From Ostrinia nubilalis (lineage: Eukaryota; Arthropoda; Insecta; Lepidoptera; Crambidae): DNA of 64,000 nucleotides. The DNA lies in NCBI RefSeq assembly GCF_963855985.1, contig NC_087106.1, positions 7,919,001 to 7,983,000 of the forward strand. Direction: 5' to 3'. Below the pieces are notes generated by a model that made no database searches, was not told the origin of the DNA, and was given only the letters and a program-made list of their open reading frames with translations. Positions 14,617 to 59,867 of the stretch are shown one piece after another (the first letter of the stretch is position 1; each line of letters opens with the position of its first letter). A program made the translations under genes and the position numbers.

Positions 14617-15172
14617 TATTGTATAAAGGAGACAGTTATATTAAACAATTTGTAACAAGATACCTACATAATATAAGTTTCATAACACAGGCCTGCAAAA
14701 TGAGGGTCATAACTTCCTCTCTGGGATTTGATAGCTGATTCTAGGGTATTTTGGTGCGCTGATTACGAATATGTACTTAGTTTTTCTCCATCACCTCCAG
14801 ATTTTTCAAAAAAGGTACAGATTGAAAATAGGAAAAAAATCACAAGTTTTTACATAAAAAAATATATCTTTAAAGAAGTACATTACTTTTAACTTAAAAA
14901 ACTACTAAAACATAATAACAACTTATTACTAGTCTAAGTTACATGTAAATTTTATTTGTGGAACCTGGTCCTTTTTTCCTGGAAGCTTCGGTTGTGCGCA
15001 GTGCCGGATTAAGCCAGCGCGGGGCCTGTAGCAAATTTATATCAAGGGGCCCTTGGTTTGCTTTAGGTTCTCAAGTTTAGGGTATTAAATGAAACAAAAT
15101 TAACTGAACTTTTCTTGATTTAATGTGGGAAAATTTAGAGATAACACTTTCAATATCAACTTATTTAAGCAA

Positions 15173-15345
15173 ATCATGCTCTATATTCAACAAAGTAAGA
15201 TGATTAAGACGTTCTTGTCCCATCGTGTTCCTTAATTCATTTTTAATACGTTTTAATGTTGAAAAAGAACGTTCGCCACTGCAGTTAGTGATCATGAGAG
15301 ACATGTAAATGCGCAAGGCAATTTCTAAGTTTGGAAAACACGATT
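15173..15345 (-). pseudogene. hAT transposase C-terminal (hATC) dimerisation domain fragment
   Basis: One open minus-strand segment reads IALRIYMSLMITNCSGERSF, then STLKRIKNELRNTMGQERL and NHLTLLNIEHDLL. The GERSFSxLKRIKNxLRxxMGxERL pattern is diagnostic for the hATC domain of the ZMYM/hAT-5-like branch. The rest of the transposase is missing, so the element cannot be autonomous. Confidence 0.8.
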
Positions 15346-17775
15346 CTAAAGAATTATTTATTAAAAGTTTTTAAAATTTTTAAAAATGATTAGTTTTTCA
15401 AATGTAGTTTGTAAAATGATCTTTTGTCATACGTTTTTTGTTAAATAATAGTAAACCTCATTTTTTAATTATCCGCTTTTTTACTTGAGTCTCTAAAACA
15501 CCTTGCTCTTAATCTACCGTCACTAGCTTTCAATAATCTCGAAACATGATCGATATGATAATCGATTAAAAAGGTTAGCTATATTCACTCATAAAAAAAA
15601 TGAATCTATATTTTATAATAAATCAACCAACTATAGTAGATTGGATCGTGACTGAATTAATAAAATTTAAATAGTTCGCCTGTTTTCTCGAAATATTGAT
15701 AATCGATATTATATTAAAATCGATTAAAAAAGTATAATCTCGGCTACCTACGTAAACTCATAAAATAAATGTATATACCTATAGAAAAAAATACAAATCT
15801 GGCCGCTTGAAGGGTAGAAATGTGGTATCTATAGATGCTAGTCTAAATTTAAACATTATAGGCCAGTAGAATTACATTTTAAATCGGAAATGTGAATTAC
15901 ATTTTAAGGCTGACAATAGTGTCTGAGTTTCTTGCGCTGCTTCTTCTCAGCACTGGCCCATTTATTGTCCTGAAGCAGTGGTAGGGTTAATACTGGGTCG
16001 TGTAAAAGTGCTTTTTTAATAAAGCCTACTTACAGAAATAAATGAGTTTTACTGAGTTTTTACTAAATAATTCCTACAAAAGATTTTATCGCTTTAATGG
16101 CTTCATTGGTTGCCCATTAAGACTCTCCTAGGTTTTCGACTTCGACGGAGTTTACGGAGACGCTTTATAGGTTTTCCGGTTATACCGCGTAAAGGACTAT
16201 CGAAAAGTGGTCTTCCTGACGGTTGAAGGGCATTTAATCCTGCATTAAATAAGACCAAATATACAACGTGTCCCAAAATTCAAGGATAAGCCGGCGCCGC
16301 AGGGTGGACATAGTCATGACTACTTTAGGAAAAATAAGAAAAAAAATATATCTCAATTATTTTTTAAGTTACACAATAAATTATGAAATTCGTCGAAAGT
16401 TGACACCCCTTATGATATTTTACATTACCACGACCACAATTTTTCAAATACTTCTGTTTTTTTGTTTGTATCGGCAACTTAAGTAGTGCTGCTGTCCACC
16501 CTAATTCTTAAAACCCTCAGAATCCTTGCAGTTTTTACACAAAAGTTAATCAAAATATGATATTTCCTTAAAATTTTGAACGATTTTTACTTTCACTCCA
16601 CTTTGACTCGTCGTTTTGTAAAAAAAACAGTATGAACACTACTGCGGCAAGTTTATTATAAAGTTGACGCAACTATCCAAGATTCCAAAATGGTATAATA
16701 CTCTAAGAAAACTAGTCGCAAAAAAGATATGCGTACCATTTTTACAAGTACTTCGCTTGTTAGTTAGTATGGGATAAATCTTGCAATTAAATTTAAAACC
16801 AGTTCTCCTCAACCAATTGAGCTGAAATTTGGTATACTTATGTAAGTACGATGACATTGCAATATTATGGTATCATTGAGCTGGATGGAGTCTGGAGGTG
16901 GCCATAGGAACTTCTAAACGAAACGGCGGAATCGCAACTAGTTTGGGTTCGTTGGACATCTTTTCGAGCACTTTAGTGCTAGATGATGTCCATGGTCCTG
17001 ATGATGAAGTCAAGAGGTGACCAGGAGCTGGCCAAAGGAACTCCTAATCGAAATGGCGGATGATTATCGAGTTTGGGTTCGTTGAATTTGACTTCCCGAG
17101 CACTTGGACCATGAGATTGAGAAACAACTAAAAAGTGTAAAATAAAGTTATAATAAAAAAAAACTTTTTTAAGAACAAGCATTAATGCGAAATTTTACGA
17201 AAGAATTTAACTATAAAAATAATTGAATGCAAGGTTCAAATAATTTCGAAAGTTTGTAGCGCAAACAGAAAAAAAGAGGAATAAATTCCATGCGCGATTA
17301 CAACTTTATTTTAAACTTTTTAGTTGTTTCTCAATCTCATGGCCCAAGTGCCCGAGAAGACAAATCCAACGAACCCAAACTCGATAAGCTTCCACTATTT
17401 CGTTAAGGAGTTCCTATGGCCAGCTCCTGGCCACCTCTTGACTTCATCATCAGGATCCTGGACATCATCTAGCACCAAAGTGCTTGAAAAGACAAATCTA
17501 ACGAACCTAAACTAGATGCAATTCCGCCGTTTCATTTAGAAGTTCCTATGGCCACCTCCAGACTCCATCCAGCTCAATGATACCATAATATTGCATTGTC
17601 ATCGTACTTACATAAGTATACCAAATTTCAGCTCAATTGGTTGAGGAGAACTGGTTTTAAATTTAGTTGCAAGATTTATCCCATACTACTAACAAGCGAA
17701 GTGCTTGTAAAAATGGTACGCATATCTTTTTTGCGACTAGTTTTCTTACAGTATTATACCATTTTGGAATCTTGG

Positions 17776-17959
17776 TGTTAATCGAACTAACTATTCTAAT
17801 TCTGTCGTATCAATAAAAACCAGTTTCAGAAACGTATACCGTCTATTCTTCCTCAAGTGACATTAATAAAAAAAAGCGAACATCGAAAGTTAATAGACAA
17901 TAAAAAAACATAGCGTAAAAAAGTATACATATTTATAAAAAAGTGTCCATTCGTGGACA
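17776..17959 (-). repeat. 3' LTR of the BEL/Pao element
   Basis: In element orientation it begins TGTCCACGAATGGACAC, which is itself a small palindrome, and ends TTCGATTAACA. It is matched by the 5' LTR at 23671-23854 over all 184 bp. Confidence 0.92.
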
Positions 17960-17976
17960 TCCTCCCCTTTTTTAAA
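17960..17976 (-). promoter_or_regulatory. Polypurine tract of the BEL element
   Basis: Immediately before the 3' LTR the minus strand reads AAAAAAGGGGAGGA. A purine tract directly adjoining the LTR is the standard plus-strand primer site. Confidence 0.8.
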
Positions 17977-19361
17977 GGAAAACGATTTTTCGCATCTACT
18001 ACCCAGTCGGAGCACCTTCCGCCAACAGCTCCTACCCATCAAATCAGTCTTGACTCTTCGCACGAGTCGATCCCAGGTGCCGCCCATAAATGGAGCCGAA
18101 GGGAGTATGAAGCGCCAGACGATTTTATTGATCGCAGTGTAGTCCGAAACCGCAGTATCGTAGAGGACCCGAAGTTGCCGATTTGCTCCAACAAATGACG
18201 TGCCATCATCGGAGAGATTGGCGCTCGATGTGCGATAAACCTCTGGAAACACATAATAGCCGTATCCGCAGGGAGGCTTGCAACGATCTCAAGGTGGATG
18301 GCTCTCGACCATGCACGTGAATAATGCCACCCAACGTTTCTCCTTCCTGCGACCGATGGCAACTTCAACTGGTCCAAAATAATCAATGCCGGTAAAAGTG
18401 AAAGGGCGCTGATGGTGAGCTAATCTTTCCTCCGGAAGATCTCCCATTGGAGGACAGAGCGTTGATCTCCGAAGCAGCTTACAAGTCTGACATCTATGTA
18501 TGACCCACCGAACAGCGTTTCGTATGCCGAGAATCCAAAACTTCTGCCGCAGTTCATTAATGACACTCTCCGTGTTGCAATGAGCGAATTTCTCATGGTA
18601 ATGAAGAATAAGAAGGCGTACCAGTGGCTCTTTGCCATCCAAAAGTACCGGTAGCTGCGCCAAAGTCGACGATGTTCTCCCCGCGAGGCACAGCAATCCA
18701 TCCTTCAACACCGGGGATAGTGTGACAAGGCGGCTCTTTCTTGGCACGGGTTGGTGGCGCATCAGACAGAGCATTTCCTCTTGAAAAACGTTCAGCTGAC
18801 TCCGAGCCAGAAGATGTCGTTCCGCACGCAGAATGTCCTCAGCTTTTAGCGGCAATAGGCAAGGAGCTGTGGCGAAAGGGGTCGAAGATTGAAAACCTGA
18901 TCTTTGCGTTAAACAAATATCCCCAACCCAAAAATTTTGAAAAATGTGACCCCGATTTTTGAATATGAGCGCGAGAAATATATGGACCCTAGCAGTTGCC
19001 CTTACCAGTCTAACCCAAGAGCTGTTCGGATGGTACGATGTCATACGTTCGGGTGGTACGATGTCATATGAAATGGGTGACTTGAAGCCTTTTTCCGCAG
19101 GCCACTCACTGATTGGAGTTACTAAAAGGTCTGGACAATATCGTGACTCAATGCCGCATGTTCCAGTGAGAGTCAGTCCAGAAAAAACGCCGACGCGGTT
19201 TAATTCGATGTGCGTCTCCAATAGTCGTGGCCCGACGAGAAGCTATCAAAGCTCCCTGCAATTCCAATCGGGGAATTGAAGCGGGCTTAAGCGGAGATAC
19301 CTGTGCATTGTTAGCCACAAATTCTGAAAAAGTATCCGACCTCTCACTAGTATGGGAGCGA
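17960..19361 (-). pseudogene. BEL/Pao pol remnant: RNase H edge and broken integrase
   Basis: Near 19200-19320 the minus strand reads SIPRLELQGALIASR and RRRFFWTDSH, typical of the BEL RNase H region. Then come FQEEMLCLMRHQPVP, the integrase zinc module (HYHEKFAHC then CQTCKLL), and the start of the core, GIDYFGPV. The core continues in other frames (RAIHLEIVASLP; WRFILPSAPFMGG). At least three frameshifts and a deletion are needed to join these. Reverse transcriptase is entirely missing. Confidence 0.8.
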
Positions 19362-19419
19362 TGTCCACGAATGGACACTTTTTTATAAATATGTATACTT
19401 TTTTACGCTATGTTTTTTT
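19362..19419 (+). repeat. Inverted 58-bp LTR fragment inside the BEL element
   Basis: Reading on the plus strand, TGTCCACGAATGGACAC and the following ~40 bases equal the beginning of the LTR in the orientation opposite to the two flanking LTRs. It sits exactly between the envelope-like ORF and the pol remnant, marking a rearrangement or template-switch junction. The last four codons and the stop of the envelope-like ORF come from it. Confidence 0.85.
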
Positions 19420-20779
19420 CAGTTTTCTCATTTTTGTTTGTTCGAATAAGGGATTCTTCCACAATTCCGGAGAGATTATAATACGGCCCATTGAACTGTG
19501 GGTCAATACTCCTTCTTTTCCTCATCAACATGGGCATTGTTGAACAAATATTGTTTATTGTTAATCCAGGGATCTGCTTTAATAATGAGTCAGACTCACA
19601 CATCAAGAAGCCCTCTTGTAGGCAGGACTGAGGATCTAGAAGCATTGGGTTCTTGACCACAATACTTGAGGATTTTGATGAAGGATAAGCAAGATACAAG
19701 TATGGTATAGGAGAGGAGTAGCATTTATTCTTTATCCATATCTTCGGCTCCCACTTTACATAATGTAGCAGTTGAAACCTCGTTTCTGGTTGAGGGATCG
19801 TTACTTTAATAACCAACTGTCCATTTGTCTCATCAATGGCCTTTAAAGAGGTGACTAAGTGAGGAGATATTGATGATATGTAGAGAAGTAACCCGGAGCT
19901 TATTTTCTGCTCTAACCAATTCCTCTGAGTTTCTAGACTCATTATGAATGGAGGAATTTTCCCTTGAAGCAGGATCATCAAAGAAAATGTTAACTGGCTG
20001 AGGTAATTTGTTAACAGATGTGCACCACGAATCTTAATCTCGGATAGTGTCTCAACATCAGATATTAACTTCTTGAATTCATCTGTTGTGTCCCTTATTT
20101 GTTCATTAAGAGACATCGTTACTAGTGAGATTTTTTCCAATACTTTAAGATCCTCTTCTCTTCTATCATAAAGATTTTGGATCTGCTGGGTCAGTTCCTG
20201 GTATTTTTGATCTGGGATAGCACCAAATATATCTGCCATCTCATAGGCGAAGACGCCGGCTGATATTGCGTAACCCGTGTATTTTAAGGTTTTAATGAAT
20301 TTCCCATACTTAGTTAACTGTCCACCAACCCGAGCCACTGGTCTAATAGCCCTTAGAAAAGCCATCACTACTCTCAAGGGATTGCGCTTGGTTCTAGATA
20401 AATGAGTCATATCAAACGTTTTCCGCTCCTCTGATATTTCAGTTGGGTAGGGGGTCACAATTAGCTGTTGGAAGGTTGACAAGATGCTGGTGTACTGCTG
20501 TTGATAGATCTTTTCAAGATAACCAAATTGCCTAGAGAGACTCTTGTAAACAGCTGCAGGTGTCTTCTCTCTATCTACCGTTGCTAGTGCGTCATGAAGC
20601 ATGCGTTCGGGAGGTGTAAGTTTGATTATGAGGGCTTCATCTGCATAGTCATCTATCAGTGCACCTTTAATTATTGGTGCTCTAGTTTCTACAAGGAGCG
20701 GCTCCTCTTCTTCACCTAGAATGTCACTGAAAGCACAGTTAATACTTAAAAATAATACAAAAGCTACTAAAAATCTCAT
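19403..20779 (-). CDS. Envelope/fusion-glycoprotein-like protein (F-like), C-terminally truncated
   Basis: Intact 458-codon ORF. Residues 1-18 form a clean signal peptide ending CAFS. A furin-type site RTKR at 129-132 is followed by a long hydrophobic/amphipathic region to about 187, then a heptad-like helix (about 193-250). The distal half has four cysteines (353, 386, 394, 412) and ordering that resembles baculovirus F and errantivirus Env (PF12259-like): a small N-terminal fragment, cleavage site, helical part, then a conserved distal domain. A second basic site RKRR is at 420-423. There is no transmembrane anchor, because the frame runs into an inverted LTR scrap and stops. Such proteins mediate membrane fusion in related viruses. 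Here a secreted product is predicted, and function is unknown. The F-like assignment is by architecture only. Confidence 0.7.
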   Translation of the reverse strand: MRFLVAFVLFLSINCAFSDILGEEEEPLLVETRAPIIKGALIDDYADEALIIKLTPPERMLHDALATVDREKTPAAVYKSLSRQFGYLEKIYQQQYTSILSTFQQLIVTPYPTEISEERKTFDMTHLSRTKRNPLRVVMAFLRAIRPVARVGGQLTKYGKFIKTLKYTGYAISAGVFAYEMADIFGAIPDQKYQELTQQIQNLYDRREEDLKVLEKISLVTMSLNEQIRDTTDEFKKLISDVETLSEIKIRGAHLLTNYLSQLTFSLMILLQGKIPPFIMSLETQRNWLEQKISSGLLLYISSISPHLVTSLKAIDETNGQLVIKVTIPQPETRFQLLHYVKWEPKIWIKNKCYSSPIPYLYLAYPSSKSSSIVVKNPMLLDPQSCLQEGFLMCESDSLLKQIPGLTINNICSTMPMLMRKRRSIDPQFNGPYYNLSGIVEESLIRTNKNEKTEKNIA

Positions 20780-20980
20780 CTTTGAATTTAAATTAACGGG
20801 TTCAGAGCTTAATGTAGAGATAAGAAATATGTCCCATTTCAGTTTTTAGTTTGTTTGTTTATATTTTTAATAATCTTTATCGGTTTTTTCTAAACATAAC
20901 TATGTCATTGATTGGTTAACATTAATATATCAAAAATAATCAGGTATATATCCCTTATAACCCAATGTTATATAATTTAT

Positions 20981-23596
20981 TTACTCAATCCACTCTCCTG
21001 ATCCATCACTATCAAGATCCTTATATGAGGAAAATGATACTGCAACTGGTGCTTTGGTCTCTATCCTTTCTTGTCTATATCCAGTTCCAAGATTTGGTCC
21101 TGTTTGAGGTATTTGAGGTGGGATATTCATCTCTTGGCCTGTCCTCTTTACTGCCTCTGAGGTAAGGACTCTCAATGTCTCATTCATTCGGGACATTAGT
21201 AATGTCATCTCATCAGCACGTGATGGTCCTCTACTTGTTTCTAATCTTTCATTATTATGGTTACTCTCTTGTAAATTTTCAGTTATGGATTTTTTGATGG
21301 TTTCCGATATTTCATGCTTAAGATCTTGAATATTGAAAAAATCAATTGAGGTTTCAGCTGAGTCTATCTTAATACCTTGTTCTTCGATGAGAGCTTCCGA
21401 TTCACGCCTCGGATCGTCGCGTGATACCATAATATGAAACACTGGAATGGACGAGGTAACCGCTTGCGTTTTGTTACCCGAAAACCCAAACAAAACCCAT
21501 CCCAGTTGAGTTCGAATGGCAACCGGCTGAGATTTCGAACCACTTCTGGTCTCGGAAGGGACTGTGAGAGACCAGTTATCGACACCTATAATCAGCATGG
21601 GCCTCGCTTCATCGTAGCATAATTCGTGTACTATGTCAGCTAAATACGGAAATGATTGGAGGCTTTCTCGTGGCGCAGACTGGCTGCGCAGCCCTAAGTC
21701 CTTTATCGACCTCGCCCCTTGAATAGGGTAACTCGTATCGGAACAACGACCTTTTATTTCAAAATCCACATACTGCACGGCGCTATCTTTTGTTAAACCA
21801 CCTACACAATCTAAATGAATTTGTCCCTGAGGACCTTCAGCGCCTATTCGAGAGGCGATGTCGGAGTCGATCAGCGTGGCTGTAGACCCGTCGTCTAGTA
21901 GTGCAAACGTATCGACACTACCAGCAGGCCCAGACACGGTAACAGCCACTACCTTTAATAAGGGACGTAATGCAGGATTGTTAACTAGCGTATCGGTTGC
22001 GTTGATAGCTACCGTATCAGGTTTCGAGTTAGATGACGTTGAAGGAGATGATTGTTCGATATTATGATGTGCGGCCGAAATGTGATTAGGTTTAAAATTT
22101 GGATCGTGTAATAGCATGTGATGTTTTGCATCGCAACCGTTTGCCTGACAATTTAATTTGTTCCTATTGCACGTTTTAAAAATGTGGAAACCTCTTTTTA
22201 GACAGCGGTGACAGATTTTATTCCTTTTAATAAAATGCCATCTGTCATCGACTGTCAATGACATGAAGTCTTTGCAATTTGACAGATCGTGCGTTTGTTT
22301 ACAAAATGAACAAATTTTTGATGTTGGATGATTCGGAACATTTATTGGATGCATTGCAGGTGCCTTGAAAGTCGTACCTGAAGTTGACTCGGAGATGGTA
22401 TGTGTCCGGTGGTGAATTGGGCCCTGTGTCGTGGCATCGGCCACCGCCCCAAACTTTACCACTAAATCCACCTCACGAGATAGGAAGCGCGACAACATCT
22501 CTACCTTACCTTGGCCTAAACTCTCGTTAGCGGCAGCGAAATCCAGCCATCGTGCGCGTAGCAGTGGAGTCAACTTACTTAACAGTCCCCCGAAGAGCTC
22601 AGGGGAGCGTAAATAATCGTGGTGTTCCAATAATTTCACAATTTCGACACAGTTACGCACACGAGTGGCAAAGATTGTCAGATCCCGCACTTCCGGGCCC
22701 AGTTTAGGCAAGGCTTTGATGGAATTGACCTCCTGCAAAACGATTAACTCAGGCCTTCCGAAACGACGTTCCAATGCGTCAATTACGTCTTCCGCTCGAT
22801 GCGCCATCACCAACAATGTCCCTACGGCCTCTCGTGCGGCTCCTCTCAGAGCCTGGTTTAGCCGGGCGAGGTTCTCCGTATCTGAAAATGTATTAGATGT
22901 GTCAACAAATGCACGTTTAAACATGAGCCATTCTAATGGAGATTTCCCATCGTATGTCGGCAACGGTGTCACATTTTTGCTAAACGATGGTTGTTGCTTC
23001 TCGGCAAAGGTGTGTAGGGCTTCAACAAGCTGCGCAACGTCAATCGTGTCACCCTCTCCATCGTAGTGCTTATCGATGGCATTGACCCCATTGCCTCGTT
23101 GATGATCGCGCCGAGGCGGATTCGAAGGGCCCGATGCCGGCACTAGAGGGATGACGGCGTCAACGCAGTGCTCATTTTCAGCCTGTTGACACACTTTTGG
23201 AGAATTAACATGCCCTACCTCCGCACCGTGGTGCGGTTCGTTCTCGGAGTCCTGCAGCCATTCGGCCACTCGTGAGTTACTGGACTCCGAGACTGCCTCA
23301 CTCAATGCTTCAATGGAAGCCAGCTCCGCTTGATATTCGGCCTCCGCCACTTTACGCTCTAATTCTGCAAGGCGGCGAAGGTGGCGCGCCTCCGCTGCGA
23401 GTTTCCTCGCAACAATCGTAGCGGAGGAGCGGCGGCTACGTGCGGATAAGGAAGACGGGCGGGTGGTATCGATAATCGGATTGGTTGTTACCTGTGTTTC
23501 CGAAGGATCCGTTTGGGTGGCCGGTGTAGGAGGCATTGGAACGACCTCGCTACTTGCCTGAATTGGTTCCTTTTGCGAACGTGTATTTGCCATCAT
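20981..23596 (-). CDS. BEL/Pao Gag-protease polyprotein with an unrelated C-terminal extension
   Basis: 871 codons open without interruption. Residues about 50-110 are a basic coiled coil (LAELERKVAEAEYQAELASI). About 205-360 is the Gag region of DUF1759 type (LPTYDGKSPLEWLMFKRAF). Zinc knuckles follow at about 428-495 (CSFCKQTHDLSNC; CHRCLKRGFHIFKTC). The aspartic protease has its active site in LLDDGSTATLID at about 565-577. After about residue 742 the BEL pattern stops and 129 residues of unknown origin follow in frame (from KIDSAETSIDFF to SDGSGEWIE), where the reverse transcriptase should begin. The start is set by an MM pair just inside the 5' leader. An intact Gag in an RT-less element is typical of parasitic retroelements. 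Confidence 0.88.
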   Translation of the reverse strand: MMANTRSQKEPIQASSEVVPMPPTPATQTDPSETQVTTNPIIDTTRPSSLSARSRRSSATIVARKLAAEARHLRRLAELERKVAEAEYQAELASIEALSEAVSESSNSRVAEWLQDSENEPHHGAEVGHVNSPKVCQQAENEHCVDAVIPLVPASGPSNPPRRDHQRGNGVNAIDKHYDGEGDTIDVAQLVEALHTFAEKQQPSFSKNVTPLPTYDGKSPLEWLMFKRAFVDTSNTFSDTENLARLNQALRGAAREAVGTLLVMAHRAEDVIDALERRFGRPELIVLQEVNSIKALPKLGPEVRDLTIFATRVRNCVEIVKLLEHHDYLRSPELFGGLLSKLTPLLRARWLDFAAANESLGQGKVEMLSRFLSREVDLVVKFGAVADATTQGPIHHRTHTISESTSGTTFKAPAMHPINVPNHPTSKICSFCKQTHDLSNCKDFMSLTVDDRWHFIKRNKICHRCLKRGFHIFKTCNRNKLNCQANGCDAKHHMLLHDPNFKPNHISAAHHNIEQSSPSTSSNSKPDTVAINATDTLVNNPALRPLLKVVAVTVSGPAGSVDTFALLDDGSTATLIDSDIASRIGAEGPQGQIHLDCVGGLTKDSAVQYVDFEIKGRCSDTSYPIQGARSIKDLGLRSQSAPRESLQSFPYLADIVHELCYDEARPMLIIGVDNWSLTVPSETRSGSKSQPVAIRTQLGWVLFGFSGNKTQAVTSSIPVFHIMVSRDDPRRESEALIEEQGIKIDSAETSIDFFNIQDLKHEISETIKKSITENLQESNHNNERLETSRGPSRADEMTLLMSRMNETLRVLTSEAVKRTGQEMNIPPQIPQTGPNLGTGYRQERIETKAPVAVSFSSYKDLDSDGSGEWIE

Positions 23597-23650
23597 CTAA
23601 TTTTTACCAACCGCTTTTTACCAATATACTGAGAACTGCTGAAAAATAAG

Positions 23651-23670
23651 CTAGTGATCCGGCTCGAAGA
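23651..23670 (-). promoter_or_regulatory. Primer-binding site of the BEL element
   Basis: Directly inside the 5' LTR the minus strand reads TCTTCGAGCCGGATCAC. It is complementary to a tRNA T-arm/acceptor sequence of the form GATCCGGCTCGAAG. From memory this best fits insect tRNA-Tyr, read a few bases in from the CCA end. That tRNA match should be checked. Confidence 0.5.
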
Positions 23671-23854
23671 TGTTAATCGAACTAACTATTCTAATTCTGT
23701 CGTATCAATAAAAACCAGTTTCAGAAACGTATACCGTCTATTCTTCCTCAAGTGACATTAATAAAAAAAAGCGAACATCGAAAGTTAATAGACAATAAAA
23801 AAACATAGCGTAAAAAAGTATACATATTTATAAAAAAGTGTCCATTCGTGGACA
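23671..23854 (-). repeat. 5' LTR of the BEL/Pao element
   Basis: 184 bp, no difference from 17776-17959 seen by eye. Flanked outside by CTTGG (23855-23859) and inside by the primer-binding site. Confidence 0.92.
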
Positions 23855-24769
23855 CTTGGATAGTTGCGTCAACTTTATAATAAACTTGCCGCAGTAGTGT
23901 TCATACTGTTTTTTTACAAAACGACGAGTCAAAGTGGAGTGAAAGTAAAAATCGTTCAAAATTTTAAGGAAATATCATATTTTGATTAACTTTTGTGTAA
24001 AAACTGCAAGGATTCTGGGGGTTTTAAGAATTGGAGTGGACAGCAGCACTACTTAAGTTGCCAATACAAACAAAAAAACAGAAGTATTTGAAAAATTGTA
24101 GTCGTGGTAATGTAAAATATCATAAGGGGTGTCAATTTTCGACGAATTTCATAATTTATTGTGTAACTTAAAAAATAATTGAGATAGATTTTTTTTCTTA
24201 TTTTTCCTAAAGTAGTCATGACTATGTCCATCCTACGGCGCCGGCTTATCCTTGAATTTTGGGACACGTTGTATATGTTTTGAACAAACCGTTCTCGTGC
24301 AAATGTTCGCCGAACGCCGTAAGTCCTTTACGCGGTATAACCGGAAAACCGAAAAAGCGCCCCTTTCGGGGGCCCCCACCACTTAAGCACAACTCCGTCG
24401 AAGTCGAAAACCTAGGAGAGTCTTTATGGGCAACTAATGAAGCCATTAAAGCACTAAAATCTTTAGTAGGAATTGTTTTACATTTAATTCATTTTTGTGT
24501 TTAATTCTTCTGGCCTATTAGAAAACATTCCCGTTAAAAAGTTCGTAAAATACCTACCTACTTATTTTTATGATTTAACGTGATGAAATCGAGTTTTAGA
24601 TTTTCAAGTGAAAGTAAAGCATAGCCTAATGCAAGATATTTTACGCTCCTATCTAAATTAATCTTTTTTTATTTCGGCTTTGGAGCGCGGGGCCCCCAAA
24701 TTCGCGGGGCCCGTAGCATTTGCTACTCTTGCTACGTGGCTAATCCGGCACTGGTTGTGCGAGTTTTGC

Positions 24770-29334: not shown

Positions 29335-30215
29335 TCATCTATCTTACGCGGTTCAGATTTTTTCATACAATTTTTTTCCCGCTAACTCCCGTTCCCGTGG
29401 GAATTTTGCAATATCCTGTTGTAACTAAGCTTTAAGTTTACTAAGGTACCTGCATGCCAAATTTCAAGCGTCTATCTTACGCGGTTTAGATTTTTTCATA
29501 CAAATGTTTTTTCCCGCTAACTCCCCTTCCCGTGGGAATTTTGCAATATCCTGTTGTAACTAAGCTTTAAGTTTACTAAGGTACCTTCATGCCAAATTTC
29601 AAGAGTCTATCTTACGCAGTTTAGATTTTTTCATACAAATGTTTTTTCCCGCTAACACCCGTTCCCGTGGGAATTTTGCAATATCCTGTTGTAACTAAGC
29701 TTTAAGTTTACTAAGATACCTGCATGCCAAATTTCAAGAGTCTATCTTACGCGGTTTAGATTTTTACATACAAATGTTTTTTCCCGCTAACTCCCATTCC
29801 CGTGGGAATTTTGCAATATCCTGTTGTAACTAAGCTTTACGTTTACTAAGGTACCTTCATGCCAAATTTCAAGGGTCTATCTTACGCGGTTTAGATTTTT
29901 TCATACAAATGTTTTTTCCCACTAACTCCCGTTCCCGTGGGAATTTTGCAATATCCTGTTGTAACTAAGCTTTAAGTTTACTAAGGTACCTGCATGCCAA
30001 ATTTCAAGCGTCTAACTTAAGCGGTTTAGATTTTTCATACAAATGTTATTTCCCGCTAACTCCCGTTCCCGTGGGAATTTTGCAATATCCTGTTGCAACT
30101 AAGCTTTAAGTTTACTAAGGTACCTGCATGCCAAATTTCAAGCGTCTAACTTAAGCGGTTTAGATTTTTCATACAAAAGTATTTTCCCGCTAATTCCCGT
30201 TCCCGTAGGAATTCC
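29335..30215. repeat. Seven-copy ~135-bp tandem repeat inside the Helitron
   Basis: The phrase tatcttacgcggttta recurs at about 29339, 29473, 29609, 29743, 29877, 30013 and 30148 (the last two drifted to taacttaagcgg), giving a period of 134-136 bp. Each unit contains cccgttcccgtgggaattttg and aagctttaagtttac. The copies differ by few bases. Confidence 0.9.
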
Positions 30216-33389: not shown

Positions 33390-34680
33390 CTAACACTTGT
33401 GCAGGTGGTGATAATTGTCTAAGTGACGAGCATAGGCTAAATACCATGCGATACTCATCACATGTGAGCAACACCCTACTGTCCTCAAACCCACAATGCA
33501 GTTGCAACAATATCCTATGATGGCACGCCTACCCTCTTGAGTCCTGTCAAGTGCTATAAACACAAAATATATTTTTCTTGAAATTATGCCTAGATTTTAT
33601 TTTGCCTCTAATTAAAATTGGAGCTTCTCCATCTAGAGGAGACAGATCAACTGCATCCTCCCGGCGTACATGAGTTTCAGACACCCCGTGAAACCTTAGA
33701 TGCTCACCAGTATAAGACCTCGCTTGACAAATTTGGTAAGTGCCACATGCGAACAAAACTAATTCTTTCATAGACAATTGTGGGAAAGATATTTGTGCTG
33801 TTACAATTTCATTAAAAAATGTATTTCGTCTCTGTAAATTCTGTGTAGCCACAATAGTGGCTAATATGTTACTGAGAAATAGTCGTTCATTTATAATACC
33901 GACTTCAGCATGGACCGAGTTTGTGATGTATTTAACAGAGCTGCTGCTATTTTGAAATTTTTCATTAAATGAGATGCAGCTCTGTCAAAATACTCCTGTC
34001 TAAATATTTTATAGTCCCTTTTCACTCTACCATTTACAGCTTCCACAACCCATCTATTAATTGTAACACATCGGCTCTTATTGCCTTCCAGGGTTGTGAG
34101 TTGTTTTTGACAGAGATTCTGGCACATGAGCATCAAAACCAAATCTTGAATTTTATCGATGCAGTCTCGAAATCCTCGGTCCAAAATAAAAATGTCTCCT
34201 ACTCTGAAAAACTCCCTGACAGCAGTTTCCTTTACCCACGAAGACATTATTGTGGCATCGTTAGTGGTTGCTGGGAATGGTCCTAAATTATCTAATATGA
34301 ATCCATCGCAACAAACAATCATGAAAGGTTTCACAAGGTTTTTATATTTATGGATTGAATACGTAGATTTTTGGAATAAATAGTTTGTACTTTTTTGTGT
34401 GTATATGTATGTGCCATCACATATGACTATGGCATGTCGCTCTTCTACTGGAGACTCAGGATTGCCAAACAAACCATTGGCTATAATAGAATTTTTTGCA
34501 GCTACGTCTTCCCTAGAAATGTGCTGATTTCCTAGATGTCTAGGCACAAAGTTCATTAATAAATGTTCTCTGGCTATGTCCATTAACGTTTCCGGTGTTC
34601 TTCTGGGCACTTGGAACAAAGCTGATAACCTATCTCCATAACCTGTCTCCTGAGTCCCCAATTCTTAATATACGGAGTAA
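33390..34680 (-). pseudogene. DDE_Tnp_4-type transposase (PIF/Harbinger-related), nearly complete
   Basis: A 256-codon frame at 33891-34661 has SALFQVPRRTPETLMDIARE, then the first catalytic Asp in CDGTYIYTQ, DNLGPFPATTNDATIM, the second Asp in DRGFRD and the Glu in RWVVEAVNGRVK. After one frameshift near 33930 it continues as QLSMKELVLFACGTYQI and YTGEHLRFHG. It ends, out of frame, with a Cys/His tail (YCCNCIVG, RTVGCCSHVM) reminiscent of a SWIM finger. All three acidic residues survive. The extreme N-terminus is replaced at about 34690 by Gypsy gag sequence. Confidence 0.75.
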
Positions 34681-42665: not shown

Positions 42666-42720
42666 AGAAAAAGAATTTATCAGTGTGGATCATAAAAACC
42701 TTTCAAATTGAGAATCTTTT

Positions 42721-45700
42721 GTGTCGTGCAGTCGAGTACTAATTATGGAACACGCTCGGCCACCGCCAGAATTGAGTTTGGAGGGCAGCTCCGTCGGCCG
42801 GGCCGACGCGTGGAAACGGTGGAAGACGCAGTTTTTACTGTTTCTGAAGGCATCAGGGGTGCACAAGGAAGATGATGGGGTACAGGCGAGTTTGCTCATC
42901 AACTTGGTCGGACCAGAAGGGTTCGACGTATATGAGACTTTTACGTTTGAGAAAAATTCGGACAAGGACGACGTCGCCATCTTGATAAAAAAGTTTGATG
43001 ATTATTTCGGTGTGAAGCCAAACATAACGTTATCGAGATACAATTTCTTTACAAGAAGTCAAGAAACCGGCGAGTCCATCAATCAATACGTCACTGCATT
43101 GAAGTTATTGGCAAAAACTTGTGGATTTCAATCTTTGGAAACTGAACTGATACGTGACCGTATAGTGTGTGGTATAAAAAATACGGTTGTTCGTGATCGC
43201 TTGTTGCGAACAGAGGATTTGACATTAGACAAGGCAATAAAAATATGCCAAGTCGACGAGATATCGGTGGATAGCGGCCGTTTGTTGGAGACGCATGGCG
43301 CTGGCGCCGGGCCCTCGCGCGTGGACGCGGTGCGGGCGCGCAGCTCGGGCCGGGGGCGCGGGCGCGGCTGGCGCGGGCGCGGGCGCGGCGGCGGCGCTCC
43401 GGGCCGCCAGCTGCCGGTCGACACGGGCGCGAGTTGCCCCAGGTGTGGCGGTCAGTGCGGTGAATCGAAGCAGTGTCCAGCTATTTTTGTGCAGTGTTAT
43501 GTGTGTGAAAACCATGGTCATTTTGCTAGGATGTGTAAGTTAAAGAAAAATGTGAAGAAGTTATACGACATTGGAATGAGTCAAGAGTTAGATGAAGAAA
43601 ATGACTGTGAGTCGTTTTATGTATCTATGCTTTTTAATGTCTCTGAGGTTAGGTCCTTGTCAGAAGACTGGTGTGAAATACTTAATTGTGACAATGGATC
43701 AGAAACATTTAAATTAGACACTGGCGCAGATATCAATGTACTGTCTTATAAACGGTTCTTACAGTTAGGTTTTAAGCCAAAAAATATTGATGTGAGTAAT
43801 AATGTCAAACTTCAATCTTACAGCGGAGACACTATTCCTATAAAAGGAATTTGTCATTTAAAATGGTATTACAAGAATGTTTCTTATAATCTTAAATTTG
43901 CTATTGCTTCTATAGATTGTCAAAGTGTGCTGGGACTTAATGCTTGTACAACATTAGGACTAGTTCAGAGAATACATAATATTAATTTGGCAGAATATGA
44001 TGATTTGTTTACTGGGTTAGGTTGTTTGCCCGGGGAATATCACATAGTAGTTGATAAAGAAATACCACCGGTGGTTTGTGCTCCGAGGAAAGTACCATTA
44101 GGGTTGCGTGATCAGTTACTAGAGGAGTTAAATAGAATGACACAATTAGGAGTTATAAGAAAGGTGAGTCATCCTACACCATGGGTAAATTCTCTTGTAA
44201 TTGCTGCCAAGAAAAATGGTCAATTACGTTTATGTTTGGATCCGAGGCCTCTTAACATGGCAATACAGCGCGCTCATTTTCAGTTGCCAACAATAAATGA
44301 ATTAGCTACTAAACTTCATGGGGCTAAATATTTTTCAGTCCTAGATGCAAATTCTGGGTTTTGGTCTGTAAAGTTAGACAGTGATAGTTCTGACTTGTGC
44401 ACATTTAATACACCTTTTGGGCGTTACCAATACTTAAGATTACCGTTCGGTTTGAATTGTGCACCTGAAGTATTTCATGCAAAAGTCAAACAATTATTTG
44501 AAGGCCTGGAGGGTGTAGATTCTTTCATAGACGACCTAATTTGTTGGGGGAGTACCAAAGAGGAACATGATAAAAGATTAAAAGCATTGTTAGACAGAGC
44601 GCGGGAAATAAATTTTAAATTTAATAAAGAAAAATGTCGTATATGTGTGCAAGAGGTTACATATTTAGGCCACATCTTTAATAAGCACGGAATGAAAGTA
44701 GACCCAGAAAAGGTCAAAGCTATAAAAAATATGCCTGAACCTAATGATCGAAAGAGCTTAGAGAGATTTTTGGGGGCAGTTAATTACCTTTCTAAGTTCA
44801 TACCTAATTATTCAGATCACACTTTCACGCTAACCCGGCTTTTAAAAAAAGATATTACATGGTGTTGGGAATCAGAGCATAAAAAAGCGTTTGAGAAATT
44901 GAAAGATCTTATTAGTGATGCGCCGGTGTTGGCGTTGTACGACGTCGACAGCCCTGCGCTGCTGTCGGTGGACGCCAGCGGCGTGGCGCTGGGCGCCGTG
45001 CTGCTGCAGCGCGGGCGGCCCGTGGAGTACGCGTCGCGCACGCTGACGCCCGCGCAGACACGCTACGCGCAAATCGAGAAGGAGCTGCTGGCTATTGTGT
45101 TTGCATGCGAAAAATTTCACCAGTATATTTACGGAAAAAAACAAATCATTGTGGAATCTGACCATAAACCGCTTGAGTGTATATTTAAAAAGCCTTTGGA
45201 TGCAGTCCCAGCACGCTTGCAGCGTATGATGTTAAAGCTTCAGGGCTATGATTTGAAACTTATATATAAACCAGGGAAGTTCATGTATATACCTGATACA
45301 CTCTCGCGTGCGCCGTTACCAGATTTGTATGATAGTGATATTAGTATGGCCATATTAAATCACCTCAGAATGATTGTATGTAATGTGCCAATGTCTGAGA
45401 GTAAATTGTCTTTGGTAAAGCGGGAAACTTCTAAAGATAAAATGTTAAATCAGTTGCTTAGTTATATCAATGAAGGCTGGCCTAGTCATAGATATAATGT
45501 AAAAGACAATTTAAATTATTTTTGGTCAATGAGAGACGAACTGTATTGTGTTGATGGGGTTATTTTCAAAAATAAACAAGTATTGATTCCGAGTTCGTTA
45601 AGGAGTTTAATGCTGGATATTATCCATGATGGGCACTTAGGAATTGACCGCTGTAAAAGACGCGCACGCGAGGTTTTGTTTTGGCCTGGTATAGTTAAAG

Positions 45701-46647
45701 ACATAGAAGATTATGTTAAAAGATGTAAAGACTGTCGGGAGAATTCAAACAAACCAAGTAAAGAACCAATGCTTCCTGTATCAATCCCTGCTTTGCCTTG
45801 GAATAAAATAGGCACAGATATATTTGAGTTTGGAAAGAAAAGCTATTTAATTATAGTAGACTATTTTTCTGGTTTTATTGAATTGTCAAGTATGAGAGAC
45901 ACTACTTCAAGTACAGTGATAAATATTTTAAAAGAAAATTTTGCTAGGTATGGGATTCCAGAAACTGTTATAAGTGATAATGGCCCTCAGTTTTCATGCT
46001 ATAGTTTTAAAAGTTTTTCACTTGAGTGGGGATTTAATCACATTACTTCTTCTCCATATTACGCACAGTCCAATGGAAAAAGTGAAAGGGCTGTGCAAAC
46101 CATAAAAAATATGTTAAAAAAGTCTATTGACAGTAAAACTGATTTTTATTTAAATTTGTTAAGTTATAGAAACACTCCTAGAGAAAACTTGAATTCTCCT
46201 GCACAACTAATGATGGGGCGCCGATTAAAATGTAGGCTCCCAGTACATCCAGACTTATTGAAACCGCAAACATGCGATATGGCACTACAACACAAAAACA
46301 TTTTAAATAAGCAAAAACACAGTAAATTGTATTATGACAATCATAGTAAAAACATGTCAGAATTAAATGTCGGTGATGATGTAATTATGTTAGAACATAA
46401 TAATGAACGAATCCACGGTAAAGTTGTTGGTAAGGCGTCAACTCCGCGTTCTTACATAATTAAAAATAAGATGGGTATTTATCGTCGCAATCGCCGACAT
46501 TTGATTAAAAGTGTGCCATCATTGCCGGAGACGGTGACACATAATAACAATAAGGGGGGTGATAGGTATGGTAAGGTCATAAGCAGGCCGTATTCTCCTC
46601 CTATAACCCGCAGTAAGACTGGTAAAACTAAACCAAAAGTATGGTAA
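42721..46647 (+). CDS. Gypsy-type Gag-Pol polyprotein, single intact ORF
   Basis: 1308 codons; the true start may be the second ATG (42745, MEHARPPPEL). Order: Gag (to about residue 190), an Arg/Gly-rich linker, zinc knuckles (CPRCGGQCGESKQCP about 237; CYVCENHGHFARMC about 259-272), protease with LDTGADINVLS (about 331), reverse transcriptase with the catalytic FIDDL (about 602), RNase H (SVDASGVALGAVLL, about 747), integrase zinc module (IHDGHLGIDR...CKDC, about 968) and core with D in TDIFEFG, D in SDNGPQF, E in NGKSERAVQ. All catalytic motifs are intact, typical of K02A2.6-like Gypsy elements of insects. No env. Two GC-rich patches contrast with the AT-rich remainder. The 3' LTR is not found, so remobilisation of this copy is unlikely. 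Confidence 0.93.
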   Translation: MSCSRVLIMEHARPPPELSLEGSSVGRADAWKRWKTQFLLFLKASGVHKEDDGVQASLLINLVGPEGFDVYETFTFEKNSDKDDVAILIKKFDDYFGVKPNITLSRYNFFTRSQETGESINQYVTALKLLAKTCGFQSLETELIRDRIVCGIKNTVVRDRLLRTEDLTLDKAIKICQVDEISVDSGRLLETHGAGAGPSRVDAVRARSSGRGRGRGWRGRGRGGGAPGRQLPVDTGASCPRCGGQCGESKQCPAIFVQCYVCENHGHFARMCKLKKNVKKLYDIGMSQELDEENDCESFYVSMLFNVSEVRSLSEDWCEILNCDNGSETFKLDTGADINVLSYKRFLQLGFKPKNIDVSNNVKLQSYSGDTIPIKGICHLKWYYKNVSYNLKFAIASIDCQSVLGLNACTTLGLVQRIHNINLAEYDDLFTGLGCLPGEYHIVVDKEIPPVVCAPRKVPLGLRDQLLEELNRMTQLGVIRKVSHPTPWVNSLVIAAKKNGQLRLCLDPRPLNMAIQRAHFQLPTINELATKLHGAKYFSVLDANSGFWSVKLDSDSSDLCTFNTPFGRYQYLRLPFGLNCAPEVFHAKVKQLFEGLEGVDSFIDDLICWGSTKEEHDKRLKALLDRAREINFKFNKEKCRICVQEVTYLGHIFNKHGMKVDPEKVKAIKNMPEPNDRKSLERFLGAVNYLSKFIPNYSDHTFTLTRLLKKDITWCWESEHKKAFEKLKDLISDAPVLALYDVDSPALLSVDASGVALGAVLLQRGRPVEYASRTLTPAQTRYAQIEKELLAIVFACEKFHQYIYGKKQIIVESDHKPLECIFKKPLDAVPARLQRMMLKLQGYDLKLIYKPGKFMYIPDTLSRAPLPDLYDSDISMAILNHLRMIVCNVPMSESKLSLVKRETSKDKMLNQLLSYINEGWPSHRYNVKDNLNYFWSMRDELYCVDGVIFKNKQVLIPSSLRSLMLDIIHDGHLGIDRCKRRAREVLFWPGIVKDIEDYVKRCKDCRENSNKPSKEPMLPVSIPALPWNKIGTDIFEFGKKSYLIIVDYFSGFIELSSMRDTTSSTVINILKENFARYGIPETVISDNGPQFSCYSFKSFSLEWGFNHITSSPYYAQSNGKSERAVQTIKNMLKKSIDSKTDFYLNLLSYRNTPRENLNSPAQLMMGRRLKCRLPVHPDLLKPQTCDMALQHKNILNKQKHSKLYYDNHSKNMSELNVGDDVIMLEHNNERIHGKVVGKASTPRSYIIKNKMGIYRRNRRHLIKSVPSLPETVTHNNNKGGDRYGKVISRPYSPPITRSKTGKTKPKVW

Positions 46648-49670: not shown

Positions 49671-50639
49671 AATTTAAAAACGCGTGTTGCCTCCATGGGC
49701 ATCTACCACAGCTCTCATACGATTACGCATAGAGTTTATCAACCGCTCTATGAAATTTTGAGGGATCATCTCCCATTCCTCTTCTATGGCAGTTTTCAAC
49801 TCCTGCATCGTCTGGGCAACTGGCTGACGAGCCCTAACACGTCTTTTTAGCTCGTCCCACATGTGCTCAATGGGGTTCATGTCTGGGCTTCTGGCTGGCC
49901 AGTCCATAACTGTGATGTTCACATCATCACATCCCGAAGATATTCCCTGACGATGCCGGCCGCATGGGCTCTTGCATTATCATGCATAAAAAGGAAATTT
50001 GGGCCCACATAGTCCGCGTATGGTATCACGTGAGGTTCTAAGCACTCACGAATGTACCTTTCAGCATTTAATGTTGGCAGCCGTGGTCCTGTAACAACCT
50101 CAAGTTGAGTTTTGCCGCTCGCGGATATACCGCCCCAGACAGTCCATGAGCCACCGCCATAAGCAACCCTCTCTTCAAAGCAACATTTTGCGAAACGCTC
50201 TCCCTTACGTCGGTAGACCTTCTTCCTTCCATCATTGCCATGTAACACAATTTTAGACTCATCAGAAAAGAGTACACGGCTCCAATCTTGCTGTGTCCAA
50301 TTTAAATGACTGCGTGCGAAATGAAGGCGCGCTGTTCGGTGGGCTCGCGTTAGTTTGGGCCCATTAGCTGGCTTGTGTGGTACCATATCGCGTTCTTTTA
50401 ACCTTCTCCGAATAGTTTGAGCGCTCACAGATACTCCGTAGAAGTCGCGAAGTTGGTTTTGTATCTCAATGGAGGTAAGGTGACGATTTCTCAAGCTGGT
50501 AGTCACGATGAATCGATCCTGCCTTTCAGTTGTAACCCGAGATCGTGGCCTTCCATGGCGACGAACAAAGCCGCCAGTCTCTACCCAAGTAACACAAAAC
50601 ACAATTATAAGAAGCGTACAACAGCATGAACCTACGTGC

Positions 50640-51920
50640 AGAGCAGTATATGAGCAGCATATGTAGCACTATATCAGCCGTATAAAAGTCTATAAGTGTC
50701 TTGTAAGCGCAATTTGGGCCCCAAATAATACGGCTTTGAGCATTATTAAATATTATTAGTGCTGCTAACCAGCGCTTATAATGTTATTGAAGACAGACAT
50801 TAGTAAAGTTGTTAGACAGCATATTCTAATGTAAAAAGCATTTTATTAGATGTTAGTACAGCTTTGAAACAGCTTTCAGAATTACAATGCCAAAGTTACG
50901 TTTTATTCTAAGGCTGAACGTTTTATTTTGTTTGTTTGAAAGTATTCGAAAAAACTTATCGCATTTTATTGTCCGATTTGATTATTTTTCGTTTAGAGTA
51001 TTGCAGTGCAATGGTGTTGTGAGGAGATGTTTTAATGTCTTTGTTTAAAATAATTTATCATAAGGTAAGTATCATTTTTTTTTGTTTCAAGAATGAAAAT
51101 GAGCTGGGAGTATTAGTCTTATGTGAAAATATATATATGTTTGTGGTTTATAATTCACGCGCCCTCACAGAAATCCTTTTTTTAATAAAATAGGGACAAA
51201 TTTAGAATCGACATATGACACTTTTTGTGATTTTTTTAACGATTTGATTAATTTTAACTTATAAAATTGGTTCTATCGATACTCCGCTTGTAAGAAAAGG
51301 ATAATAAGTAGTATTTCATGCATATGTGTATTATAATTTTATTTTCTATGTTAGAGAAAACAGAAAGCAAATGGCGTCAGATAATATTAATGTTTTAAAC
51401 TTTCAACTAGTGTCTTTTAATGTTGTCAGTCTTATTATAGTAAAAAGAAAATGGTTAAGTCATTCAACCTACATATAAAATATCTAAGTGATATCTTTAG
51501 CATTACTGTAACACTTTTTAGGTATGTTATAATGTTCATTAGGTTTAAACGTCATAAAAATGGATTGCTTTAGTGTTAATCAGGGTACCGAAACAATAAT
51601 TTAGAATCCTTTAATCACGTCATGATCCCCTACTCCACGTCTTTCAATTTTATCTGTCTCCAATTAGGTAGGTACCTAGTTTGACAAGTGTTAAGTATAA
51701 AATCATTATCACTACAAATGTAATTTGTAATGAAACACGATATAGCTACCTATCTTATTTTTCGCTCATTGTAATAGTAATAATTTAAACGAACTTTTTG
51801 TAACTAGTTAGTAGTGTTGCTGTAGTCGTTTTTTAAGGGTATGCGTTATACGGGTAATTATTTAGTTTTCAGGTAACTACTTCTCTATTAAGTCATAAAT
51901 AAGCTTATTTGTTTTTTTTT
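50640..51920. other. AT-rich interior of the TA/CCCAAGTAACAC element, no gene seen
   Basis: No domain, RNA gene or repeat array recognised. A T-rich stretch ending TTTTTTTTCAG at 51923 looks like a splice acceptor. Confidence 0.5.
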
Positions 51921-58700: not shown

Positions 58701-59867
58701 ATAATTTTACTCTCGTAAACTAAGTAAATGTAAACTAAGTAAAAAAGTAAAATTTCTCACGTCTGTCAATTTGAAGGTTTTATTATTTTGAGCTACATGC
58801 CCCTTTACCTGCGCCTATATCAATTCGATAGGGTTTAGCTCGCAATGGTAAGGGGGCAGTCTTAAAACCGTGATCCCATGTTGTGCTGCCATTTCGTCTA
58901 CAGCGTACTTATTAAAAGACTCGTTATGTGGAATCAGTTCTAAAACCATATCTGGTTCGTAATGAATATTTTTATTTAAAAGCCAATCTTGAATGGCAGC
59001 CTTTTTCCAGCTCATTTTTGGTGCCGTTTCCAATTTTCGGGAGTGGTAAGGTGCATTATCCATCACCACAATTGAGTTTGGTCTTAATTTTGGTAAGACT
59101 CCAGTGAACCACTCCTCAAAACAAACTGCATTCATCTCATCATGGAAATCTTCACAATTTTTTTTTGCTTCAAAAATCATGAGCCCCTCTTCCAGGAAGC
59201 CTTCTTCACTACCTATGTGGCTAATTATGAGACGTTTGCTTTTTCCAGATGGATTTCTTAATCCAGTGGTCAGTCCCTCCAAAAACGCTTGTCGAAATGA
59301 TGTGACTTTCTTGTCCACCCAAGTTTTTTTTTTACAGTATGACCTTAAAATAAATATGGTACATGAACATTCAATATTACTATTAAATTTAATGTAAAAT
59401 GTATATAAATTCATTTTGTGTATAAATGTTAGCTTTACCTGCGTTAACCCAAGTTTCATCTTGATAATATATATGTCTCCCATCTCGTCGAAACTGACAT
59501 ATAGATCGCAAGTAACGCTGGCGCCATGTTATTATATCATTTCGATCAATAAGTGTACTCTTGCGTGACCGTGCAACAAAGGATGATGGGCACAAATGTA
59601 TGGAAAGTGGTACCCGCTCCAATAGCCATAACCAATATATATTTTAAAAGGCCTTTAGATGTAGGAAAATGTCTGCTATGGGGCCAGTTCTAATTCACGT
59701 TTTAAAAGCAGTAATTCCACTAAGTATTATAATGAAAGTATAACACAATCATCCATGTATACGAGTATGTATTATGACTACAATCTATTAATATAACTAA
59801 AATAAGCATTGAAAAGGAAAGGATTATACCTACGATGAACTACCCAAGCTATTAGCCCTTTATTCGC

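What the first reader, a model, noticed from the sequence alone, without database searches (positions are those of the whole stretch)
17776..23854. Recently mobile BEL/Pao element that lost reverse transcriptase and carries an intact envelope-like ORF
The two 184-bp LTRs look identical and the element has a clean CTTGG duplication, so this exact rearranged structure inserted recently. Yet it has no reverse transcriptase and a broken integrase, while its Gag-protease (871 codons) and a secreted, furin-site-bearing 458-codon ORF are both open. A parasitic retroelement that keeps Gag plus an envelope-like protein, rather than a polymerase, is unusual. BEL/Pao elements with acquired glycoprotein genes are known in insects (for example chuvirus glycoproteins in mosquitoes), but this protein is not obviously of that type.
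Basis: partly seen in the sequence, partly recalled or inferred. Interest (0 to 1): 0.92.

Follow-up and report, generated by a model that had tools for sequence, protein, structure and literature searches.

The report
RNA-virus genes inside nested jumping genes
In the European corn borer genome a crippled retrotransposon holds a stretch of two neighbouring genes from an RNA virus, and the whole package was copied to three chromosomal sites as a passenger of an ordinary cut-and-paste DNA transposon.

Summary
In detail: the 184-base LTRs are identical, CTTGG is duplicated, no reverse transcriptase was found, and both long ORFs are open. The interpretation changes. The 'envelope' is a xinmovirus (Mononegavirales) glycoprotein relative: 44% identical to gp3 of Hangzhou zicrona caerulea xinmovirus 1, and 93% to an unnamed public protein. 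About 1.95 kb of apparently contiguous virus-like sequence sits where pol was: 133 final codons of the preceding gene, fused in frame to gag-protease; a 201-base gap; and the glycoprotein gene, cut off before its membrane anchor. A 58-base inverted LTR piece marks the 3' junction, as expected if reverse transcription switched templates. A virus-free sibling shares pol deletions, so the element was probably already defective. The host is Ostrinia nubilalis. The chimera lies at three places with 2 variable sites in 6,079 bases, but all three share the same CTTGG site and flanks. The repeated unit is a 9.76-kb hAT transposon with a different 8-base duplication at each place. So one BEL insertion is seen, then spread by hAT. 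Glycoprotein capture by BEL/Pao is known (Anakin, chuvirus); this virus, the two-gene segment and hAT carriage were not found in my searches. Function is not shown.

The parts
14999..24753 (.). hAT-type DNA transposon unit carrying everything below; inverted ends CAGTGCCGGATTA; 8-base duplication GTTGTGCG at this site (14991-14998 and 24754-24761)
   Evidence: same unit at C24 (TCCCGACG) and C19:1.38 Mb (ATCTTACG); four family copies without the insert, three with full 8-base duplications, the fourth (L026) cut after 5 matching bases; Dimer_Tnp_hAT remnant in L028
16260..24275 (.). about 1.93-kb inverted-repeat element (ends TATACAACGTGTCCC) nested in the hAT, itself interrupted by the BEL element
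   Evidence: high-copy family, uninterrupted copies at C4 and C23
17776..23854 (-). BEL/Pao element with virus-like block, 6,079 bases
23671..23854 (-). 5' LTR
17776..17959 (-). 3' LTR
23855..23859 (.). target-site duplication CTTGG (other copy 17771-17775)
21376..23596 (-). BEL gag-protease part of the 871-codon ORF
   Evidence: DUF1759; 95% identical to Ostrinia furnacalis P0009 over 44% of the query; collinear with L011 to 21377
20981..21382 (-). virus-like tail of the same ORF: C-terminal 133 residues of the gene before the glycoprotein (position of P, inferred), in frame, with stop
   Evidence: 88% identical to P0008 residues 247-379
20780..20980 (-). 201-base gap between the two virus-like genes
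   Evidence: virus origin inferred from its position
19403..20779 (-). xinmovirus glycoprotein-like ORF, 458 codons; hydrophobic start, RTKR and RKRR sites, no C-terminal anchor; last codons from the inverted LTR piece
19360..19419 (+). inverted copy of the first 58 LTR bases plus two bases beyond, at the 3' junction
17960..19359 (-). remnant of RNase H and integrase with deletions shared with L011

Best explanation
A defective, probably already RT-less BEL/Pao element of Ostrinia was reverse-transcribed with help in trans. During minus-strand synthesis the enzyme (1) reached the pol remnant, folded back on its own PPT/U3 cDNA and copied 58 bases of U3, (2) jumped at a run of seven T/A to a positive-sense RNA of a xinmovirus and copied back from the glycoprotein gene through the gene junction into the preceding gene, and (3) jumped at GAACAA back to BEL RNA in the protease region. 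The cDNA inserted once, with a CTTGG duplication, into a high-copy inverted-repeat element lying in a non-autonomous hAT transposon. hAT transposase moved the 9.76-kb composite, giving three copies. Shown: relationship to a xinmovirus glycoprotein, two collinear foreign frames, inverted LTR piece, a single BEL insertion site, three hAT insertions, shared pol deletions. Inferred: that the join preceded insertion, the order of switches, help in trans, the RNA sense, the identity of the preceding gene. No function is shown; the default is a recent passenger.
For: Glycoprotein: 7 hits at E<=10 among 6481 candidates, among them gp3 of Hangzhou zicrona caerulea xinmovirus 1 (44% over 93%, 9e-110) and unnamed P0001 (93% over 78%). 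Two furin-type sites at matching places in P0002-P0004. Foldseek with a low-confidence model ranks a named xinmovirus protein second, and 8 of 8 PDB matches with E<=0.001 are paramyxovirus or pneumovirus F. Preceding gene: 133 codons 88% identical to P0008; in this genome P0008 matches only over residues 243-379, so its first part is not BEL sequence. GC 0.375 in the virus-like part against 0.492 and 0.494 in the BEL parts. Junctions. Older defect: the window element and L011 share gaps against P0009 at residues 701/778 and 1286/1352 and join at 828/878 (base alignment; translation). Single insertion: same flanks and duplication in 3 of 3 copies; empty target. hAT. Virus-like sequence was matched only at these three places: 3 matches each by DNA (3 candidates scored), P0008 (16) and P0002 (5).
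Against: LTRs and target duplication would look the same if the virus block had entered after insertion. No virus nucleotide sequence was available, so homology on the virus side is known from proteins alone. P0008 has no named relative. P0001 and P0008 come from short contigs and could themselves be endogenous; P0001's end differs from its relatives. The fold-back leaves one extra C. L011's own RT deletion starts at the same GAAGAACAA: shared breakpoint or hot spot. L011 and the window element also have gaps they do not share (77 bases one way, 80 and 23 the other). No close RT-bearing parent was seen (best 47-56%; 32 of 3171 candidates scored). Structure models are poor (pLDDT 53.5 and 50.6), and Foldseek's 11 virus matches at E<=0.001 also include filovirus-like and rhabdo-like glycoproteins.
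Confidence: 0.76

Rival explanations
1. DNA-level origin: virus cDNA, or a virus segment already in the genome, was joined to the BEL element by break repair, perhaps after the element had inserted, and not by template switching during its reverse transcription.
For: Only one insertion is seen; clean LTRs and duplication do not date the join; repair can also leave inverted pieces and short homologies.
Against: No other copy of the virus-like sequence was matched in the genome; the inverted piece runs from the PPT/U3 border with complementarity at the break, which fits reverse transcription better.
Confidence: 0.17
2. A gag-env parasite: a BEL lineage that replaced polymerase by an envelope and spreads with help in trans.
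For: Both ORFs open; LTRs identical; three copies.
Against: All three copies share one insertion site; the glycoprotein lacks the C-terminal anchor of P0002-P0004 and ends in LTR-derived codons; it sits in the pol position, behind a stop.
Confidence: 0.04
3. Host-retained antiviral locus: Gag-protease fused to the tail of the virus gene, or the secreted glycoprotein fragment, interferes with the virus and is kept by selection. This concerns use and could hold beside either origin.
For: Both reading frames are open in all three copies.
Against: Copies are too young for a test of selection (2 variable sites, one of them Pro to Ser in the C24 copy); no expression data.
Confidence: 0.08

Closest known systems
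Anakin: Pao elements with chuvirus glycoprotein in mosquitoes (PMC7642597; abstract and one results section read)
   Same: BEL/Pao element with an RNA-virus glycoprotein inside its LTRs; highly similar LTRs in the likely autonomous copies
   Different: Anakin spread by retrotransposition and 13 copies were classed as complete and likely autonomous. Here: xinmovirus, two-gene block, no RT, glycoprotein truncated and in the pol position, one insertion, spread by hAT
Insect LINEs with virus helicase domains (PMC4686597, PMC5563155; start of abstract seen in listing)
   Same: RNA-virus gene inside a retroelement
   Different: non-LTR elements with a helicase domain of positive-strand virus type; the TRAS case is described as preserved in many lepidopteran families
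Oncogene-transducing retroviruses (recalled, no call)
   Same: foreign RNA replaces pol, gag fused in frame to foreign protein, defective, needs help in trans
   Different: foreign RNA here resembles a negative-strand virus, and the visible copying was by a DNA transposon
Jingchuvirales glycoprotein insertions with Gypsy fragments (PMC10084718; abstract read)
   Same: virus glycoproteins next to LTR retrotransposons in insects
   Different: ancient, other virus order
Xinmovirus-like sequences in insect genome data (Colorado potato beetle, PMC9963324; passages seen)
   Same: Xinmoviridae homologues in host sequence data
   Different: the passages seen report no join to a BEL element

Membership tests
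BEL/Pao LTR retrotransposon | LTR pair with target duplication | tested here: met
BEL/Pao LTR retrotransposon | Gag DUF1759 and BEL-type pol relatives | tested here: met
   DUF1759 above cut-off; P0009 carries PF05380 and PF00078
BEL/Pao LTR retrotransposon | reverse transcriptase present (autonomy) | tested here: not met
   not found in the window element; so a non-autonomous member
BEL/Pao LTR retrotransposon | tRNA primer-binding site | not tested
   sequence after the 5' LTR was printed but not matched to a tRNA
Xinmoviridae-type glycoprotein | sequence relationship over most of the protein | tested here: met
   44% to named xinmovirus gp3 over 93% of the query; the record calls gp3 hypothetical
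Xinmoviridae-type glycoprotein | two furin-type sites and C-terminal anchor | tested here: not met
   sites present, anchor missing; a truncated copy
Xinmoviridae-type glycoprotein | neighbouring gene order as in the virus | tested here: inconclusive
   two collinear frames with a 201-base gap; no virus genome at hand
Class I (paramyxovirus F-like) fusion protein | fold | tested here: inconclusive
   Foldseek favours F proteins but model pLDDT is 53.5 and PDB TM-scores about 0.2
Retroelement env gene (Anakin-like) | env downstream of pol, intact and anchored | tested here: not met
   pol position, no anchor
hAT DNA transposon | 8-base target duplication and CAG-type inverted ends | tested here: met
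hAT DNA transposon | hAT transposase in the family | tested here: met
   PF05699 remnant in sibling L028, E 1.3e-10; the carrier unit itself shows no frame of 200 codons or more outside the BEL, so it is non-autonomous

The most novel reading that the evidence does not exclude
A Gag-protease joined in frame to the C-terminal part of a negative-strand virus P-like protein, plus a soluble glycoprotein ectodomain, form a ready-made interference cassette against the same virus: retroelement particles that bind virus nucleocapsids, and a decoy. It is copied through the genome by a DNA transposon and so not subject to control of retrotransposition.
Probability: 0.07. Interest if true: 0.93.

Novelty: new variant of a known kind. 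Interest (0 to 1): 0.73.

Why it matters
How RNA viruses without reverse transcriptase enter animal genomes is mostly inferred from old, decayed copies. Here both junctions, what looks like the virus gene boundary, and the insertion site are preserved, and an uninterrupted target and a virus-free sibling are in the same assembly. Capture by an LTR retroelement can therefore be examined base by base. It also shows a second route of spread, virus-like sequence multiplied as cargo of a cut-and-paste transposon. Copy number is then a poor guide to retrotransposition.

Tried and rejected
Chuvirus or retroelement env: none of 7 protein hits is named so, though only 3 of the 7 carry a name. Independent retrotransposition of three copies: rejected by identical flanks. 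Segmental duplication without a transposon: rejected by inverted ends and 8-base duplications. Search of IMG/VR with the glycoprotein alignment: 225 stretches matched a pattern, none confirmed. PDB sequence searches: nothing significant. Pfam on P0002, P0003, P0004 and P0008: nothing above cut-off. A model of the full-length relative P0002 was as poor and was not searched. Not obtained: whether the hAT plus inner element occurs without the BEL, and whether virus polymerase sequence (PF00946) lies elsewhere in the genome; those searches did not complete.

Full report
What is there. The window is C19:7,919,001-7,983,000 of a 495,445,069-base, 52-contig assembly. Contig number and lengths agree with the published Ostrinia nubilalis assembly ilOstNubi1.1 (52 scaffolds, 495.50 Mb; passages of PMC11851004): the lengths of contigs 4, 5, 7, 14, 18, 19, 23, 24, 27 and 30 round to the printed chromosome lengths. 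Contig 26 is 11.233 Mb here against 11.24 printed, and the total is about 0.05 Mb smaller. The BEL protein has its nearest named relative in Ostrinia furnacalis (95% over 44% of the query).

The element. LTRs are identical and CTTGG is duplicated. The element reads on the minus strand: LTR, gag-protease, a foreign block, an inverted LTR piece, RNase H/integrase remnant, LTR. The LTR has 27 matches in the genome, 27 of 27 scored, counting LTR pairs, single LTRs and the inverted pieces.

The foreign block. The 458-codon ORF is related to gp3 of Hangzhou zicrona caerulea xinmovirus 1 (44%, E 9e-110; called hypothetical in the record), to an unnamed protein at 93%, to proteins on chromosome-sized contigs of Danaus chrysippus and Mythimna loreyi, and to three more unnamed proteins; 7 hits in all at E<=10. 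P0002-P0004 have two furin-type sites, which the window ORF keeps, and a hydrophobic stretch near the C-terminus, which it lacks. Foldseek on a poor model (pLDDT 53.5) has an unnamed virus protein first, a xinmovirus protein second, and lispivirus-type, paramyxovirus F and also filovirus-like and rhabdo-like glycoproteins among 11 matches at E<=0.001. In the PDB, 8 of 8 matches at E<=0.001 are paramyxovirus or pneumovirus F. With TM-scores near 0.2 this is support and not proof of a class I fold. The ICTV profile says that xinmovirids encode a glycoprotein, are known from metagenomics only, and that structural proteins are unstudied (PMC12643095, whole text).

Upstream, the last 133 codons of the 871-codon ORF match residues 247-379 of P0008, an unnamed 379-residue protein, at 88%; its other residues show only chance-level similarity to that ORF, and in the genome P0008 matches over residues 243-379 only. 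The two foreign frames are separated by 201 bases. The block thus seems to span a gene boundary, which fits an antigenome or read-through RNA as template better than a single-gene mRNA (inference). That P0008 is the protein in the P position is inferred from place; the search that found it gave this one hit and no named relative, and Pfam and PDB searches gave nothing. P0001 and P0008 come from contigs of at most 1,238 and 1,718 bases, so they may be virus or endogenous.

Junctions. BEL homology to the virus-free sibling L011 stops at 21377, in GAAGAACAA, where P0008 also has Glu-Gln (GAR CAR). At the other end, on the minus strand, the sequence runs GTATGGGAGC, then GATGTCCACG and on through 58 bases of U3 to a run of seven T, then the virus-like block. 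GGGAG is complementary to CTCCC next to U3 in the element's own minus strand, so a fold-back with one extra C explains it. The T run fits a jump to an A-rich site in virus RNA. Repair of broken DNA is the main rival, since only one insertion is known.

Older damage. Against the RT-bearing P0009, the window element and L011 share gaps at residues 701/778 and 1286/1352 and the same join at 828/878. They also have gaps that they do not share. L011 has its own RT deletion starting at the same GAAGAACAA, identical LTRs (0 of 185) and duplication ATCTG. So RT-less copies of this family have moved, presumably with help in trans. Searching the genome with P0009 gave no copy close to it; long matches were 47-56% identical, with 32 of 3171 candidates scored, which makes a near-identical full copy unlikely but does not exclude one. 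A DNA search with the L011 junction region gave L011 itself, six matches in the three chimeras and one 104-base match (8 of 8 scored).

Spread. The chimera lies at C19:7.94 Mb, C24:10.34 Mb and C19:1.38 Mb with variable sites at 18997 and 21412 only. Flanks and CTTGG are the same in all three. The repeated unit is 14999-24753, without substitutions in the aligned flanks and with one 9-base length difference. It ends in CAGTGCCGGATTA and has duplications GTTGTGCG, TCCCGACG and ATCTTACG. Four family members without the insert have the same ends; three show full 8-base duplications and one is cut after 5; L028 keeps a hAT dimerisation domain. Inside lies a 1.93-kb inverted-repeat element with uninterrupted copies at C4 and C23, the latter showing the empty BEL target. 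The order is therefore hAT, inverted-repeat element, BEL, virus-like block.

Age. With recalled insect mutation rates of 2-8e-9, zero LTR differences bound the BEL insertion at about 1-4 million generations (95%). Two substitutions in three copies taken as 9,757 bases point to roughly 9-34 thousand generations for the hAT copies. These are rough.

What is known. BEL/Pao capture of chuvirus glycoproteins is described (Anakin, PMC7642597). My paper searches for xinmovirus or anphevirus with LTR or Pao elements, for the virus by name, for template switching, for Ostrinia and for hAT-borne virus insertions listed nothing that, from titles and abstract starts, describes this case. Seven papers were opened, one of them in full; subscription journals are mostly missing and the bioRxiv library is not held. 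Novelty is stated within that limit.

Verdict. A real, recent and unusually legible join of an RNA-virus segment to a defective retrotransposon, multiplied as cargo of a hAT transposon. Function is not shown.

Noticed in passing
window 42712-46647 (+): Open 1311-codon Gypsy-type polyprotein with RT, RNase H and integrase domains; its LTRs were not examined.
   Followed up: partly
P0004 (Danaus chrysippus), P0007 (Mythimna loreyi): Relatives of the same virus glycoprotein on chromosome-sized contigs of two other Lepidoptera; P0004 keeps both furin-type sites and the hydrophobic C-terminal stretch. Context unknown.
   Followed up: no
L012 (C30:527794-530108): 2.3-kb internally deleted copy of the BEL family with identical LTRs (0 of 186), duplication CAGCC, and an open stretch 99.6% identical to the O. 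furnacalis protein P0009 over 490 residues, pointing to a very young family though no full RT-bearing copy was seen here.
   Followed up: partly
window 29338-30213: Tandem array, 135-base unit, 6.5 copies, 95% matches.
   Followed up: no
window 33891-34664, 49919-50668, 57970-58692, 58815-59528 (-): Transposase fragments: DDE_Tnp_4 (two, one just under its cut-off), Tc3-type helix-turn-helix with a weak DDE_3, and DDE_3.
   Followed up: no
window 21375-21387: The RT deletion of L011 and the virus junction start at the same GAAGAACAA; shared breakpoint or hot spot is unresolved.
   Followed up: partly
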